Source: Ignavibacteriota bacterium (lineage in GTDB: Bacteria; Bacteroidota; Ignavibacteria; UBA10030). Taken from it: DNA of 58,114 nucleotides. The position numbers were made by a program, and so were the translations under genes. The stretch covers positions 1 through 58,114 of the forward strand of contig PLMS01000047.1 in NCBI GenBank assembly GCA_003142575.1. Direction: 5' to 3'. Below the pieces are notes generated by a model. The model worked only from the letters and a program-made list of their open reading frames with translations, had not been told where the DNA came from and ran no database searches. How positions within the stretch are numbered: the stretch's first letter is position 1; every line of letters starts with the position of its first letter. Of this stretch, positions 31,944-49,145 are shown in pieces.

Positions 31944-33047
31944 CTACTTACCTGTCTCTAAATCTCCTTGTCTTATATCAGTATTTTCCTCCTTTCCATC
32001 TTTAGTGTCACCAATTTGTATACTAGCAAGTCCTAACTCAAGCTGACCAATTGCGCTCCGAAGAGTATTTACTCCGGCTTTCGCATAAATCATAGTTGTC
32101 TTCATACTGGTATGCCCAAGTATTTTACTGATAACAAAAAGATCAACTCCACATTCAACCAGGCGCGTCGCAAATGTATGACGCAAAGAATGCTGTTTAA
32201 ATCCTATAAGGTCAGCCTTCTTTAGAAAGTAAGCGAAATGTTTACTAACATAATCTTCCCGTAAATTCTGAAACAGACTGTCATCTAAACTATGAAGGAT
32301 TGCTAGTGCCTCGGGTGTAAGTGGAACAGTTCGAGAAAGGTGAGTCTTTGTTTTCTCGACGTGTATGACTCTGTTGCTAAAGTCGATATCTTTCATTTGT
32401 AGCCTAGGAACTTCACCGATCCGTAAGCCTGTGTTGAGCAAGAAAACAGCGCACTTTCTAAATAAAGCTACTTTTGTAGGGCGTTTGCGTGATCGCAGCT
32501 GGAGCAGGTGTTGATCTATTTTATTGAACACTCGTCTTGTTTCTTCTACTGTCAGATACAACCTATGTTCGTCAATTTTCATTTTTGTGATCTTTGCAAC
32601 CGGATTATTCTCTAGATAACCCCATCGTATTGCACGATTCAATGCGGCGTGAAGAAATCGATACTGAATGTTGAATGTTGTAGGGCTGGTTTCGCCAATA
32701 ATCGTAGCTTTCCAATGATCAAGCATCTTTACGGAAAGATTTTTCAGAAAGATGTTACCGACAGTGGCAATTAGTTTCTTTGCGTAATGGCGTTCGTTCT
32801 TTATTGTTTTTATGTTCTTTTCAACGCTAGCGATTTTAAAGTATTCATCAAAAAACTCCTGAAGTGTGATATTAGATTTGTGAGTCTTTTCCGGCAGGAA
32901 GATGCCTTTTGAAATATCGGTCTCAACACGAAGCCTAATCTCCTTTGCAAGTTGATAGTTGGATGTTTTAGTTGAGATAAGCCTGCGCCGGCCTTCAAAA
33001 TAGCAATCGACATACCATATTTTTCCACGTTTTCGGAGCGCAGCCAT
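31944..33047 (-). CDS. int: Tyrosine recombinase / phage-type integrase
   Basis: A 367-residue integrase for site-specific recombination at the tRNA gene. N-terminal arm-binding/SAM-like domain (about 60-150) and catalytic domain (about 175-340) with the catalytic Arg in NTGLRIGEV, Lys in VEKTKTHLSRTVPLT, HSLRHTFATRL (His-x-x-Arg), GHTS (second His) and the nucleophile Tyr in TMIYAKAG. The stop codon TAG (31946-31944) lies 1 nt from the attachment repeat, so the gene end forms part of the left junction. Its start overlaps the end of the excisionase-like gene (TAATG). Confidence 0.93.
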   Translation of the reverse strand: MAALRKRGKIWYVDCYFEGRRRLISTKTSNYQLAKEIRLRVETDISKGIFLPEKTHKSNITLQEFFDEYFKIASVEKNIKTIKNERHYAKKLIATVGNIFLKNLSVKMLDHWKATIIGETSPTTFNIQYRFLHAALNRAIRWGYLENNPVAKITKMKIDEHRLYLTVEETRRVFNKIDQHLLQLRSRKRPTKVALFRKCAVFLLNTGLRIGEVPRLQMKDIDFSNRVIHVEKTKTHLSRTVPLTPEALAILHSLDDSLFQNLREDYVSKHFAYFLKKADLIGFKQHSLRHTFATRLVECGVDLFVISKILGHTSMKTTMIYAKAGVNTLRSAIGQLELGLASIQIGDTKDGKEENTDIRQGDLETGK

Positions 33048-38058: not shown

Positions 38059-38220
38059 TAAAGATTTTATTTAGCGGAAAGGATTATGGTTGAAATTCGC
38101 CAGAAGATTGGATACCATTTACTGAAGTAAAAAATGTTAAACATTTGTAGAACGTAGATATTTTTTAGCAGCTTATTACTTGATGCCAAAAAATAATAAT
38201 CCAAAATATTGAGGTTAATT

Positions 38221-38583
38221 ATGCTTTATGAAAATAATAAACTAGTCAAAGAGGTTCATTTTAAGAATAAATATGATAAATGGAAAAACCGACTAGATCC
38301 TTCTGAATATAAGGCAATCGAAACCGAGTTAAATAATAAAATTAATGGTCACCCTGTTATCAATGCAAACGAATTGGCAGCATCAATAAATAAAGGAATA
38401 GTTTTTATTCCAATTTTCAAAAAAGCTGCTTTAAGCAACAAAAAGGACTCGAGTCTATGTTTCGGATTGTTTTTGTTTGCTACGATGATGAAGAGAGATG
38501 ATAGGTGGGATACTTATTCTGGCTCAGAATGTAGAATTTATAAAACTAGGAAAATCATTGACGATCAAACAGAAAGAGGATGA
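38221..38583 (+). CDS. Hypothetical protein at the start of the cargo region
   Basis: About 120 residues starting MLYENNKLVKEVHFKNKYDK (GAGG nine nt upstream). Mostly charged and helical, with a hydrophobic stretch SLCFGLFLFATMM near residue 80. No family is recognised. Its end overlaps the next frame, which codes for a glycosylase-like protein, by up to 86 nt depending on the start used there; this overlap hints at coupling. Confidence 0.55.
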   Translation: MLYENNKLVKEVHFKNKYDKWKNRLDPSEYKAIETELNNKINGHPVINANELAASINKGIVFIPIFKKAALSNKKDSSLCFGLFLFATMMKRDDRWDTYSGSECRIYKTRKIIDDQTERG

Positions 38584-39217
38584 ATTCTTTTCTAATTTTC
38601 CAATACCTACCGAGGGATTTGTGCGGGATGGAATCGTTGAGGAAGGATCCTATTCTTCGAGCAGTCTCAAATTATTATTTCTATTAAAAGAGCCGAATAG
38701 CCCTGGAGAAGGTGGATGGAGTCTATTAGATCATATTCATTCAGACAAACATACGCCTACATTTGATACTATTGCGAGGTGGGTTGTCGGGATTCGTAAT
38801 CTTCCAAATAGCATACAATGGAAGTTCGTTAAAGACATCAGTCCTTACTCAAGAATCAGTGCTTTGAACTATGTTGTTTTGTTTAATCTCAAGAAAATAC
38901 CTGGATATGGTATTGCGGATGAAAGAGCTTTGGAAAAATACGTCGAGAGAAATGCCGGGTTGATCAAGAGGCAATTTTCTATCTATAATCCCGACATCAT
39001 AATCTGCTGCGGAAAATCAACCGCAAGATTGTTTACTAACTTTATCTCACCAATCACAAAACCTTGGCAAATCACAAAGGGTGATATTCCTTATAGGGAA
39101 TACGAATCCAATAAAATATTATTTGCTTCTTCACATCCTCAAGCTCGCGTAAATAAAGAACGTCAATACTATGGAATAGTGAATGCGATAAATGAAATAT
39201 TTTTCAAAGATAAATAA
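38498..39217 (+). CDS. Uracil-DNA glycosylase superfamily protein (divergent, 1)
   Basis: 239 residues from ATG 38498; a TTG at 38558 preceded by AGGAAAA is an equally good start and would shorten the overlap with the gene before. Core motifs of the UDG superfamily can be seen: LKLLFLLKEPNSPGEGG (motif A region, usually 'GEaPG'), VVLFNLKKIPGYG (like 'iTNvVKcrP'), NPDIIICCGKSTARLF (like 'kvivaLG..A...l') and the late SHPQARVNK (motif B, usually HPS). The catalytic residue is not certain. A second, different UDG-like gene follows 550 nt later. A role in removing modified bases, perhaps from phage DNA, is an inference. Confidence 0.65.
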   Translation: MIGGILILAQNVEFIKLGKSLTIKQKEDEFFSNFPIPTEGFVRDGIVEEGSYSSSSLKLLFLLKEPNSPGEGGWSLLDHIHSDKHTPTFDTIARWVVGIRNLPNSIQWKFVKDISPYSRISALNYVVLFNLKKIPGYGIADERALEKYVERNAGLIKRQFSIYNPDIIICCGKSTARLFTNFISPITKPWQITKGDIPYREYESNKILFASSHPQARVNKERQYYGIVNAINEIFFKDK

Positions 39218-39250
39218 CCAAATTGTAAATATCTTTTTTGTTGCAAATTT

Positions 39251-39418
39251 ATGTTAATGAAACAAGCTATTGTGATATGTCATATTACCGTCACGAAAAC
39301 TGAACCAAATGAGAGCCTTTATTTATCTGGATTCAAAGACGATTGGTGTGAATGTGTGCAGGGTGGTAAGAAAAATACTGGTGAAATAGATACTGTGATT
39401 TCGTTGGCGTGTAAATAA
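39251..39418 (+). CDS. Possible small protein (55 residues)
   Basis: An open frame from ATG 39251 to TAA 39418 reading MLMKQAIVICHITVTKTEP and later FKDDWCECVQGGKKN. Amino-acid use is protein-like, with three Cys, but the ribosome binding site is poor and no family is seen. It may be a small gene or the remains of a larger one. Confidence 0.3.
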   Translation: MLMKQAIVICHITVTKTEPNESLYLSGFKDDWCECVQGGKKNTGEIDTVISLACK

Positions 39419-39629
39419 GGTTCAAACCACAAAAGGCCAAACCTGCTTGAACAAGTCATTATAAATCAATACGTTACTGACACCATTTGGAGATCGGTAG
39501 GGTCTGGTGTTATATTGTATAAAGAAATTATCATTTTGGAGAATATCGACTAAAACATAAAAATATAGCAATAATAAATATCGCGTAGTTTCGACTGCGT
39601 TCCTTCTGAAAACTGCCATTTTTCGAATC

Positions 39630-39743
39630 CAGGAAACGTATCGAGGACTGCGCCCAATAACATGGGCGCATCCTTTACGTCTTCCTGGTTGGCACGGCAG
39701 TGCCTCAGAAGGGGACGTATTTGGAATGCGCCCTTTTTATTTT
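39630..39743 (+). promoter_or_regulatory. Leader with mutually exclusive hairpins before the second UDG-like gene
   Basis: Three segments share one sequence. A (39630-39656, CCAGGAAACGTATCGAGG then ACTGCGCCC) can pair with B (39665-39689, GGGCGCATCC then ACGTC and TTCCTGG) to form a stem of over 20 pairs. B can instead pair with C (39711-39733, GGGGACGT..GGAATGCGCCC), a stem of about 20 pairs with an inner GGCAC/GTGCC hairpin. C is followed by TTTTTATTTT. So A:B would be an antiterminator and B:C an intrinsic terminator, 32 nt before the ATG at 39776. Because A and C are near copies, it could also be a remnant of a small mobile repeat. Confidence 0.5.
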
Positions 39744-39775
39744 CACTGTCCATATAATAATCAAGGAGATACAAC

Positions 39776-40567
39776 ATGCCAAATACATTAAGTGAATATG
39801 CATTTCCCTTCGGTCAAAAAATTCACGCAGTTCGGCAAATTGATCGTGGTCAAAAGAAAATATTTGTTCTTGGTGTTTATGCAAGCGCGGTGCATGCGAA
39901 ATGGATCTCTGTCCAAGGCAAAATTGTCGTAAAAGCTCTTGCTGTTGCAAGTGAACCTGAAATATTTTGGCGCGGAGAAAATGCCGCAGAAATTATCGGA
40001 AAGATTAAAATTCCCTCTTCTTGTGGTTACTTATTGCCTGCGAGTTCAGTTTTTAATGGTCCGTCGGGAAGAACTCTTGACGATCTGTATCTATATCCTC
40101 TTGGATACACCAGAGAAGATGTTTGGCTTTGTGATCTTTTACCAAAAAGTCGGATGAATCGAGGTCAATCTAATGCAATCGAACGCGTATACAATCCATA
40201 CCTCAAAAAGGGGTTACTTCCCCAGATAAATTTCCCTCCTGTTCCCAAAATCTTTGCCGACGAACAACGAAGAAAAGAAATAGTAAATGAGTTGATAGAA
40301 TCGAAAGCAAAATTAATAATTTTACTTGGCGACAAACCGATAGAAGGATTTTTAAAATATTATCGTCGAATTGACAGCTTATCGCAAATAACAGAAAATG
40401 GAAAGCTTTACGGAAAAACAATTCCGATAAATATTGATGGATATTCAGTCGAAGTTTTACCGTTGGTTCATCCACGTCAAGCGGGACGATTAGGAAAAGC
40501 ATCAAAGAGTTGGGGCAATATTCACAAAGCGTGGGTTCATAGACATCTATCGAGTCGCTTAAGCTGA
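39776..40567 (+). CDS. Uracil-DNA glycosylase superfamily protein (divergent, 2)
   Basis: 263 residues with AAGGAG before the start. UDG-fold features in order: KIFVLGVYASAVHAKWI (first strand and motif A region), GPSGRTLDDLYLYPLG (like 'FvGpaGrlLd.lL..lG'), VWLCDLLPKSR (like 'vyitNlvKcrp'), KAKLIILLGDKPIEGFL, and LPLVHPRQAGR (motif B, H-P-x-x). It is not a close relative of the first UDG-like protein. It stands behind the double-hairpin leader and before the PGN_0703-type nuclease. UDG-superfamily enzymes that attack modified phage DNA (for example Brig1) are known, so a defence role is possible but unproven. Confidence 0.7.
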   Translation: MPNTLSEYAFPFGQKIHAVRQIDRGQKKIFVLGVYASAVHAKWISVQGKIVVKALAVASEPEIFWRGENAAEIIGKIKIPSSCGYLLPASSVFNGPSGRTLDDLYLYPLGYTREDVWLCDLLPKSRMNRGQSNAIERVYNPYLKKGLLPQINFPPVPKIFADEQRRKEIVNELIESKAKLIILLGDKPIEGFLKYYRRIDSLSQITENGKLYGKTIPINIDGYSVEVLPLVHPRQAGRLGKASKSWGNIHKAWVHRHLSSRLS

Positions 40568-40655
40568 CGAAAAATACGGTCGACAAATTCGCTGCCGTAG
40601 CTTAGCTTCAGTAAGAATGATTGATTGTTAGACTATTTAAAGCGAAGAAATTAAA

Positions 40656-41678
40656 ATGTGCACAACTAAAAATATATTAATCGCCTTCGGCGTGTCTCTC
40701 ATATCTTTGTCCTACTGTAATAGCCAAGTATGGAGCGATTATAGTGAGGACAAAAAACCATTATATAATGAAATGATGAAATTGATTGGTAATGTTCCGA
40801 AGGATAAAAAGGACTTTACTCATCTTATGCGTCTCCATCAAGGCTGGTGGCGAACATTTGTACTGTTGGAAAAGTCAGGTCAGCATCCATCGAAGCCAAG
40901 TGAAACTGTATGCAATACAATAACAAATGGTGAAAAGACACAGAAGAATTTCCTTACTACGAATTCATATAAAGCATATGCTAAGACCATTCAAAACAAT
41001 CTGGATAAGTCTCAGATGATCGAAGAAAAGCGCGCAGTAAACAACTTACTCTCTAGTCAGCCACTTTGTTTTAATGCATTTGGGGAAATGGCCATAAACC
41101 TTGACTTAGCGACAGCATTTTTAAAAACATTGTTTCCAGATGTCAAGGAAGTAAAAGAAGTTCTATTCGAATTCCGTCCTGATGGATATAGCTATGATAA
41201 ATCGGCGTTCGATGTGGCATTTATCTTTACGACAACTGATAGCCAGAAAGCCCTTTGGGGGTTCGAAGTTAAATACACCGACAGCTTTTCACCTGTTGCA
41301 AAGAATCGAAAAGAATATTTTCAGGTTTTCACAAAAAATAAAGATCACTTTTTGTGTGAATTTGAATCTTACCAGACGGTTGAAATGAATGAACTGTTTA
41401 GAAACGAGCTTATTGCCCGATGGTGTGAAAATTCTGGAAATGTAGATAAAGCGTATACTGGGATATTCTGTCATCACGATGATACTGCAACTATTTCAGC
41501 AGCAAAACATTTTCAAAAGACCCTGAAAGATGGGGTGAACAAATTTCGCATTCTCACATACAGCGATCTCCTTACTGCGCTACAGAAACTTGATCTAACG
41601 TGGGAACAACGCAAGTGGACGTTTCTCTTTTGGGCAAGATATTGTGGAACAGAATTAAGCGAAGAAATAAGGAAGTGA
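40656..41678 (+). CDS. PGN_0703-type putative restriction endonuclease
   Basis: 340 residues. The body matches the PGN_0703 family of putative endonucleases: WSDYSEDKKPLYNEMM near the start, FNAFGEMAINLD, and a PD-(D/E)XK core with FDVAFIF (Asp) and WGFEVKYTDSF (E-x-K), then SDLLTALQKLDLTWEQRKW and RYCGTELSEEIRK at the end. The first 25 residues (KNILIAFGVSLISLSYCNSQ) look like a signal peptide, which is odd for a DNA nuclease; translation may start later, or the N-terminus may have been joined from elsewhere. It directly follows the glycosylase-like gene (88-nt gap). Confidence 0.75.
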   Translation: MCTTKNILIAFGVSLISLSYCNSQVWSDYSEDKKPLYNEMMKLIGNVPKDKKDFTHLMRLHQGWWRTFVLLEKSGQHPSKPSETVCNTITNGEKTQKNFLTTNSYKAYAKTIQNNLDKSQMIEEKRAVNNLLSSQPLCFNAFGEMAINLDLATAFLKTLFPDVKEVKEVLFEFRPDGYSYDKSAFDVAFIFTTTDSQKALWGFEVKYTDSFSPVAKNRKEYFQVFTKNKDHFLCEFESYQTVEMNELFRNELIARWCENSGNVDKAYTGIFCHHDDTATISAAKHFQKTLKDGVNKFRILTYSDLLTALQKLDLTWEQRKWTFLFWARYCGTELSEEIRK

Positions 41679-44166: not shown

Positions 44167-44299
44167 AATATAGAAAATATGCTTTATAGAGAAGCCAAAG
44201 GATATATAGCTCAGACGACTCAAGAAAATACTCTGAACAAATTTATATTTGACGACCGGCTCCTATTGTCATCAATTCGAAAGGCAAAACACTATTAAA

Positions 44300-44420
44300 G
44301 ACTTCCTATCATCTCTTCAATAACTGGATTTGTCTTTGGAGCAACGAGAATGGTCAATGCTCTTTTGGGTGAGATACTGTGGGACTGAATTAAGCGAAGG
44401 AATCGAAAATATTAATAGGA
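44300..44420 (+). pseudogene. Relic of a second PGN_0703-type nuclease (C-terminus)
   Basis: The frame at 44300 reads DFLSSLQ, a stop (TAA in place of AAA), LDLSLEQREW, and WSMLFWVRYCGTELSEGI. This matches the end of the intact nuclease (SDLLTALQKLDLTWEQRKW, then FLFWARYCGTELSEEI) nearly residue by residue. The upstream part of the gene is gone or unreadable. It shows an older duplication within the cargo region. Confidence 0.8.
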
Positions 44421-49050: not shown

Positions 49051-49124
49051 GGGCCCTTAGCTCAGTTGGTTAGAGCAGCAGACTCATAATCTGCGGGTCG
49101 CTGGTTCGAGTCCAGCAGGGCCCA
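49051..49124 (+). tRNA. tRNA with CAT anticodon, probably tRNA-Ile2
   Basis: A complete cloverleaf: acceptor GGGCCCT with AGGGCCC, D arm GCTCAGTTGGTTAGAGC, anticodon arm GCAGA-CTCATAA-TCTGC with anticodon CAT at 49085-49087, T arm GCTGG-TTCGAGT-CCAGC, discriminator A; the CCA end is not encoded. The acceptor and T arm (CTTAGCTCAG, GGTCGCTGGTTC, GTCCAGC) are much closer to E. coli tRNA-Ile2 (ileX) than to elongator tRNA-Met. If so, the C of the anticodon is changed to lysidine and the tRNA reads AUA. It is the attachment site of the 17.1-kb element. Confidence 0.93.
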
Positions 49125-49145
49125 CAAACCTCTTCGTTCTTCGTG

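What the first reader, a model, noticed from the sequence alone, without database searches (positions are those of the whole stretch)
38498..41678. Two divergent uracil-DNA-glycosylase-like proteins beside a PD-(D/E)XK nuclease
Both 239- and 263-residue proteins keep the UDG layout (an N-L-K-K or C-D-L-L-P-K strand, a helix with 'LG', and a late HP motif: SHPQAR, LVHPRQ) but differ from each other and from repair UDGs. They are followed by a PGN_0703-type nuclease. A base excision step followed by cutting at abasic sites would be an effective attack on phage DNA with unusual bases. Glycosylase-based phage defence (Brig1) is known, but a paired-glycosylase/nuclease unit of this kind is not known to me.
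Basis: partly seen in the sequence, partly recalled or inferred. Interest (0 to 1): 0.75.

Follow-up and report, generated by a model that had tools for sequence, protein, structure and literature searches.

The report
Two unusual antiviral-type DNA glycosylase genes
A mobile stretch of a bacterial genome carries two distant relatives of uracil-DNA glycosylase, enzymes that clip bases out of DNA; they look like two separate anti-virus genes that may cut altered bases out of phage DNA, while the nuclease gene beside them appears to be an unrelated neighbour.

Summary
The genome also has its own canonical UDG. The nuclease is a true PD-(D/E)XK protein.

The three-gene unit is not supported. Among 80 U1 loci the nuclease occurs in none and U2 in one. 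U1 and U2 are two separate mobile families: U1 often among defence genes and once in a Vibrio integron, U2 beside restriction genes, on a Variovorax megaplasmid and on viral contigs.

At the base-reading position U1 keeps UDG's asparagine (66 of 66), U2 has aspartate (11 of 11); Brig1 has an acid there. Best reading, inferred: two stand-alone Brig-like antiviral glycosylases, U1 for uracil/thymine-type and U2 for cytosine-type modified bases. Four of 79 U1 loci carry another UDG-superfamily gene within 2.5 kb, so loose stacking recurs. No activity was tested, and the most relevant preprint (Getz 2025) was not held.

The parts
38558..39217 (+). Conserved K44-E45-x-N47, N110-x-K112-K113 and H193-P194
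   Evidence: start; residues over 66 sequences; model and fold; profile match to housekeeping UDG
39776..40567 (+). U2: UDG-fold protein, 263 aa. Conserved G33-x-Y35-x-S37-A38, D120 and H232-P233
   Evidence: residues over 11 sequences; model and fold; alignment to UDG
40656..41678 (+). PD-(D/E)XK nuclease, 340 aa ORF; first ~37 residues without counterpart in most closer relatives; probably a separate passenger
39602..39712 (.). Strong hairpin between U1 and U2, single-copy in the genome; role unknown
   Evidence: (z -7.26, 0 of 200 shuffles as stable)
38209..38583 (+). Small ORF, 124 aa, overlapping the U1 start; not seen in the other held loci
   Evidence: distant match on a Roseomonas plasmid
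44288..44404 (+). Decayed fragment of a second copy of the nuclease C-terminus
   Evidence: 64% identity, one stop
31944..33047 (-). Tyrosine recombinase at the end of the minus-strand block beside the cargo genes
   Evidence: PF00589, E=1.3e-26

Best explanation
U1 and U2 are two stand-alone antiviral DNA glycosylases of the UDG superfamily, from two different families, stacked in the cargo region of a mobile island. Each most likely flips out and excises a non-standard base from invading phage DNA and leaves abasic sites that stop phage replication, as reported for Brig1 and Brig3. The conserved residue at the base's Watson-Crick edge suggests different prey: U1 keeps the UDG asparagine (uracil/thymine-type bases), U2 has aspartate (cytosine-type bases). 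The nuclease is a separate passenger. Shown: fold, conserved residues, surroundings of relatives, lack of an obligate partner. Inferred: base excision, substrates, phage defence.
For: UDG fold of both. Active-site-like conservation: in U1, K44, E45, N47, N110, K113 and H193 invariant in 66 sequences; in U2, D120 and H232-P233 invariant in 11. Column mapping of U2 D120 onto the Asn of UDG by two alignments, and of U1 N110 onto it. Brig1 has E147 at that position (section 10 of PMC11078745); Brig3 D127 is needed for defence and is compared with Brig1 residue 147 in section 11. Both are additions to a canonical own UDG, absent from the other 31 genomes of the family. Mobility: U1 in many phyla and in a Vibrio integron; U2 on 6 viral contigs and a Variovorax megaplasmid. 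Neighbours of U1 (247 proteins scanned): WYL 9, GmrSD_N 4, IetA 5, mad2 3, type I methyltransferase 2, SspE 2, AbiEi 1, JukA 1 at E<=1e-10. Neighbours of U2 (91 scanned): HD-CE 3, Methylase_S 2, mad8 4, type I methyltransferase 3, AriA 2.
Against: No activity was tested. U2's motif I (GVYASA) lacks the acid or Asn usual there, and its model is only moderate. The neighbour tallies have no background control and most neighbours are not defence genes. Some relatives sit among what look like ordinary chromosomal genes (L026 for U2, L107 for U1). The window's own island holds no recognised defence system: 10 nearby proteins gave only weak PADLOC matches. The residue-to-substrate rule is an inference.
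Confidence: 0.5

Rival explanations
1. UDG-fold proteins that do not excise bases from phage DNA: they act on free modified nucleotides, bind DNA, or serve as parts of other defence systems. This applies mainly to U2.
For: U2 lacks the usual motif I residue. In G041 a YfbR-like 5'-deoxynucleotidase lies between U2 and U1; in two genomes (L024, L025) U2 follows a 272-276 aa gene and an HD gene of about 1040-1054 aa, consistent with 3 HD-CE matches among its neighbours. One U1 paralogue in Psychroflexus has lost KExN.
Against: HP motif and base-reading position are strictly conserved in both families, as expected for enzymes that handle a flipped base. No partner is constant.
Confidence: 0.22
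2. Accessory repair glycosylases that remove uracil or damaged bases from the host's own DNA.
For: The UDG fold and U1's retained Asn; best structural matches are repair UDGs.
Against: The genome already has a canonical UDG. Both genes are patchy (U1 strong in 6 of 394 and U2 in 11 of 395 phylum genomes) and occur on an integron, a plasmid and viral contigs.
Confidence: 0.15
3. A true multi-glycosylase unit: UDG-fold genes with complementary base preferences are selected to sit together.
For: U1 and U2 are close together in two genomes with different gene order (window; G041). 4 of 79 U1 loci have another UDG-superfamily gene within 2.5 kb: U2 in L083, two U1-family genes in tandem in L063, a divergent UDG in L077, a family-4-like UDG in L090.
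Against: 75 of 79 U1 loci showed no second UDG with the profiles used. Genome-level co-occurrence of U2 with U1 (1 of 50) is no higher than U2's background (11 of 395). The near/far comparison is borderline (p=0.051; its one far gene is known from a motif only). Defence genes cluster anyway.
Confidence: 0.1
4. One reading: glycosylases make abasic sites and the adjacent nuclease cuts them.
For: Same strand, 88 bp between U2 and the nuclease in the window.
Against: Nuclease in 0 of 80 U1 loci and 0 of 16 U2 loci; no U1 or U2 family gene in 9 + 3 nuclease loci. A decayed second nuclease copy lies 2.6 kb away without any glycosylase of its own.
Confidence: 0.03

Closest known systems
Brig1 (alpha-glucosyl-hmC DNA glycosylase) and Brig3 (5hmC DNA glycosylase, with BapA)
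   Same: UDG-superfamily proteins found among defence genes; single-gene action; an acid at the base-reading position in Brig1 (E147) and, by the authors' comparison of pockets, Brig3 (D127), as in U2 (D120). Papers: passages and sections of PMC11078745 and PMC13160076.
   Different: Brig3's N50-P51-S52-R53-x-E55 is replaced by KExN in U1 and GVYASA in U2; U1 has Asn at the base-reading position. No BapA-like partner was looked for. No Brig sequence was available for direct comparison.
Brig2 and Dag1/Dag2 (modified-thymine and modified-guanine antiviral glycosylases)
   Same: Same kind of defence according to one sentence in PMC13216743 and one in PMC13160076.
   Different: Unknown: the preprint (Getz 2025) is not held, so U1 or U2 may belong to a family described there.
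Family-4 uracil-DNA glycosylase (repair) and UdgX
   Same: Closest solved structures for both proteins; same late HP motif; U1 keeps the base-reading Asn.
   Different: GE[AG]PG is replaced; the four cysteines invariant in the UDG set (C104, C107, C175, C191) are not among the conserved positions of U1 or U2; U2 has Asp for Asn.

Membership tests
UDG superfamily | UDG fold | tested here: met
   Models and structure comparison: U1 Z 13.0, U2 Z 9.1 to 4zbx; profile matches
UDG superfamily | Match to Pfam PF03167 above its curated cut-off | tested here: not met
   20.4 and 23.3 bits against 24.3; both just below
Family-4 UDG | GE[AG]PG motif I | tested here: not met
   KExN in U1, GVYASA in U2, against invariant G131-E132-x-P134-G135 in six UDGs
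Family-4 UDG | Four conserved cysteines (Fe-S ligands, recalled) | tested here: not met
   C104, C107, C175, C191 invariant; no such conserved cysteines
Family-4 UDG | Asn at the end of the VFICN strand | tested here: met
   Met by U1 only (N110 in 66 of 66); U2 has Asp in 11 of 11
Brig-type antiviral glycosylase | Acid at the base-reading position | tested here: met
   Met by U2 only (D120); U1 has Asn
Brig-type antiviral glycosylase | Brig3 motif I residues N50 and E55, needed for defence | tested here: not met
Brig-type antiviral glycosylase | Excision of a modified base; protection against phage | not testable with these tools
   Needs protein and plating assays
Brig-type antiviral glycosylase | Sequence relationship to Brig1, Brig2 or Brig3 | not tested
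   No Brig sequence was at hand; none appears among the structure rows shown, which excludes nothing
   0 of 80 U1 loci and 0 of 16 U2 loci have the nuclease

The most novel reading that the evidence does not exclude
Bacteria stack UDG-fold glycosylases of different base preference side by side (Asn type for thymine/uracil-like bases, Asp type for cytosine-like bases) as a modular, broad-spectrum base-excision immunity; the window and the G041 locus would be two independent assemblies of the same complementary pair, and the Psychroflexus run of three U1-family genes a further case.
Probability: 0.14. Interest if true: 0.7.

Novelty: new variant of a known kind. Interest (0 to 1): 0.45.

Why it matters
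Base-excision immunity is a young field (Brig1, Brig2, Brig3, Dag1/Dag2). U1 and U2 would add two UDG-fold families whose motif I is unlike GEAPG and unlike the residues reported for Brig3, carried on an integron, plasmids and viral contigs, together with a simple residue rule (Asn or Asp at the base-reading position) that predicts prey and can be tested with single mutants. If stacking is real, it would show how hosts keep up with phages that change their base modification. Novelty is limited because the Getz 2025 preprint, which I could not read, may already include these families.

Tried and rejected
Integron-cassette idea for the window: the genome has two IntI-type integrases above cut-off, on other contigs, and a Vibrio U1 is a cassette whose spacers recur in the array (the attC type is recognised from recall). 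By eye I saw no attC-like spacer around the window genes, and the hairpin between U1 and U2 is single-copy. No Rfam family matches it. Not pursued further.

UdgX-like cross-linking to DNA: considered because UdgX structures match; its special loop was not examined, so this stays open.

Viral relatives: four scans with U1 or U1 alignments and one with single-sequence U2 found none; only the U2 alignment found six. Phage records gave none for U1 or U2 at 1e-5. No Brig structure is among the rows shown by the fold searches; that excludes nothing.

Small upstream ORF as partner: no recurrence in the held loci. The U1 versus U2 profile alignment did not place the motifs sensibly, so the residue mapping rests on comparison with housekeeping UDG. 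The gene at L063 3155-3772 is called UDG-like from a recalled motif (GTFPP) only; Pfam gave no match; it is not among the 4 of 79 and counts only as the one far gene.

Counts and what was left out: one search kept 80 of 86 relatives; L118 gave no U1 ORF, so 79 for counts that need it. L083 is the G041 locus (L018) and L048 the Vibrio locus (L003). For neighbour tallies L083, L097, L108, L114 and L118 were left out, leaving 75 loci; of 266 neighbour proteins listed 246 were scanned plus L063 3155-3769 (124 + 123 = 247), 20 being dropped by hand, mostly short ORFs and the L063 tandem genes. For U2, 91 of 114 listed neighbours were scanned. The 16 U2 loci are L018, L022-L030 and L039-L044; G388 (L017, a short contig end) and three near-identical Variovorax records were not examined. 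The U1 structure alignment used the window plus 65 of the 74 relatives. Of the 8 weak matches, I read 6: five are GE[AG]PG-type UDGs, one is another UDG-like type.
Full report
What is there. The window is most of one contig of an unnamed 3.3 Mb genome. On its minus strand, between 31944 and 38009, lies a mobile-element-like block: a tyrosine recombinase and, among others, a DUF932 protein, a RadC-like protein and a PD-(D/E)XK protein. Plus-strand genes follow: a small ORF, U1, U2, the nuclease and several more. A tRNA-Met lies at 49051-49125.

Are U1 and U2 UDG-like? Yes. Single-sequence Pfam hits are just under the cut-off. The U1 family profile finds S. tokodaii UDG in the PDB at E=1.3e-4; the U2 family profile finds it only at E=0.032. 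The predicted models match family-4 UDG and UdgX best: U1 Z 13.0 (model pLDDT 93.3), U2 Z 9.1 (model pLDDT 77.5). Against a small set of housekeeping-type UDGs, U1 aligns at 95.6% and U2 at 90.2% probability. The genome has its own canonical UDG, with GEAPG and HPAALLR, so these two are extra.

What do the conserved residues say? In the housekeeping set the strand VFICN ends in an invariant Asn (N171). PMC11078745 (section 10) says that the residue there, N82 in S. tokodaii UDG, bonds to the base's Watson-Crick face. U1 has Asn there in all 66 aligned relatives. U2 has Asp in all 11, and two separate alignments place it on that Asn. Brig1 has Glu147 there, and E147A or E147Q affects immunity. 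Brig3 D127 faces the pocket and is needed for defence; the authors compare it with Brig1 residue 147. So U2 fits a cytosine-type base and U1 a uracil/thymine-type base. That an Asn-to-Asp change can turn a UDG into a cytosine glycosylase is recalled, not from a call. Against a simple story, U2's motif I (GVYASA) lacks the usual acid or Asn, and I cannot say what replaces it.

Where do relatives live? In the phylum sample the U1 alignment gave 14 of 394 genomes at E<=0.001, of which 6 are strong (E<1e-30); five of the six weak ones that I read are canonical-type UDGs. U2 is in 11 of 395, own genome included. The public scan found 86 U1 relatives, 80 kept, from Vibrio and Colwellia to Lachnospiraceae, Planctomycetota and Flavobacteria. 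One is a Vibrio superintegron cassette. Among 247 neighbour proteins from 75 U1 loci are WYL regulators (9), GmrSD_N (4), IetA (5), mad2 (3), type I methyltransferases (2), SspE (2), AbiEi and JukA (1 each); the lists are capped at 25 families and there is no background rate. U2 relatives: in G041 beside what read by eye as type I restriction genes and a SIR2-domain gene; in two genomes directly after a 272-276 aa gene and an HD-type gene of ~1040-1054 aa (L024, L025), and in a third (L022) with the same small gene and the HD gene ~3 kb away; on a Variovorax megaplasmid near transfer genes; on six viral contigs with varying neighbours. Some relatives lie among what look like ordinary chromosomal genes (L026, L107). 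The window's own neighbours gave only weak matches to known defence families.

Do the three genes belong together? No. The nuclease is in 0 of 80 U1 loci and 0 of 16 U2 loci; its 9 relatives' loci from other genomes and 3 plasmid loci show no U1 or U2 family gene. U1 and U2 are together in 1 of 80 U1 loci, the G041 locus, in the order U2, an HD/YfbR-like 5'-deoxynucleotidase, U1, then restriction-type and SIR2 genes. The order differs from the window and the two U1 proteins share only about 26% identity, so this looks like an independent assembly. At genome level U2 is in 1 of 50 U1 genomes and U1 in 1 of 17 U2 genomes or records: no enrichment over background.

A weaker pattern. Four of 79 U1 loci have another UDG-superfamily gene within 2.5 kb: U2 in L083; two further U1-family genes in tandem in Psychroflexus (L063); a divergent UDG (L077, E=1e-6 to the canonical profile); a family-4-like UDG with an extra N-terminal region (L090, E=1.2e-41). 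One Psychroflexus paralogue has Asp at the base-reading column and has lost KExN. The near/far comparison is borderline, p=0.051. This may be selection for combined base specificities or simple island clustering.

Known context. Brig1 (PMC11078745: passages and section 10), Brig3 with BapA (PMC13160076: abstract, passages, sections 8 and 11, first part of the references), and Brig2 and Dag1/Dag2 (seen only as sentences in PMC13216743 and PMC13160076) make antiviral glycosylases a known kind. The preprint behind Brig2 and Dag1/2 is not held. DefensePredictor's legend names UDG among domains of predicted systems not yet validated as defensive (one passage of PMC13092281). The listings of searches showed no paper that I recognised as describing U1 or U2, but since the key preprint could not be read I do not claim that they are unpublished.

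Verdict. Observation confirmed; three-gene unit rejected; best reading, at 0.5, is two separate Brig-like antiviral glycosylases with probably different base preferences. Fold and conservation are shown; activity, substrates and defence are inferred.

Noticed in passing
L063:6422-8648 (Psychroflexus gondwanensis): Three U1-family genes in tandem, one with Asp instead of Asn at the base-reading column, KExN lost and an extended C-terminus; a type I methyltransferase-like gene follows (by eye).
   Followed up: partly
L018:4808-13890 (G041, same as L083): U2, a YfbR-like HD 5'-deoxynucleotidase, U1, restriction-type genes and a SIR2-domain protein lie in one run.
   Followed up: partly
   Followed up: partly
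L039-L044 (viral contigs): U2 sits in a variable spot among phage genes (DUF6712 proteins in the tally) with different neighbours in each contig, like phage cargo.
   Followed up: partly
window 39602-39712: Very stable hairpin (z -7.26) between U1 and U2, single-copy in the genome and without an Rfam match.
   Followed up: partly
window 44288-44404: Decayed remnant of a second copy of the nuclease's C-terminus in front of the next gene, 2.6 kb downstream.
   Followed up: no
window 40656-40766: The nuclease ORF begins with a signal-peptide-like stretch that most closer relatives lack; possibly a wrong start or a chimera.
   Followed up: partly
L162:1063-1788 (G379): Another UDG-like protein with GAFPSA as motif I and Asp at the base-reading position (WITD), which recalls U2.
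   Followed up: no
L171:4923-10082 (Pimelobacter simplex plasmid): A relative of the nuclease lies near a RecB-like nuclease and an ADP-ribosylglycohydrolase; the latter gene type also neighbours Brig1 homologues according to PMC11078745.
   Followed up: no
window 49051-49125: tRNA-Met downstream of the cargo genes, a possible attachment site of the island; not tested.
   Followed up: no
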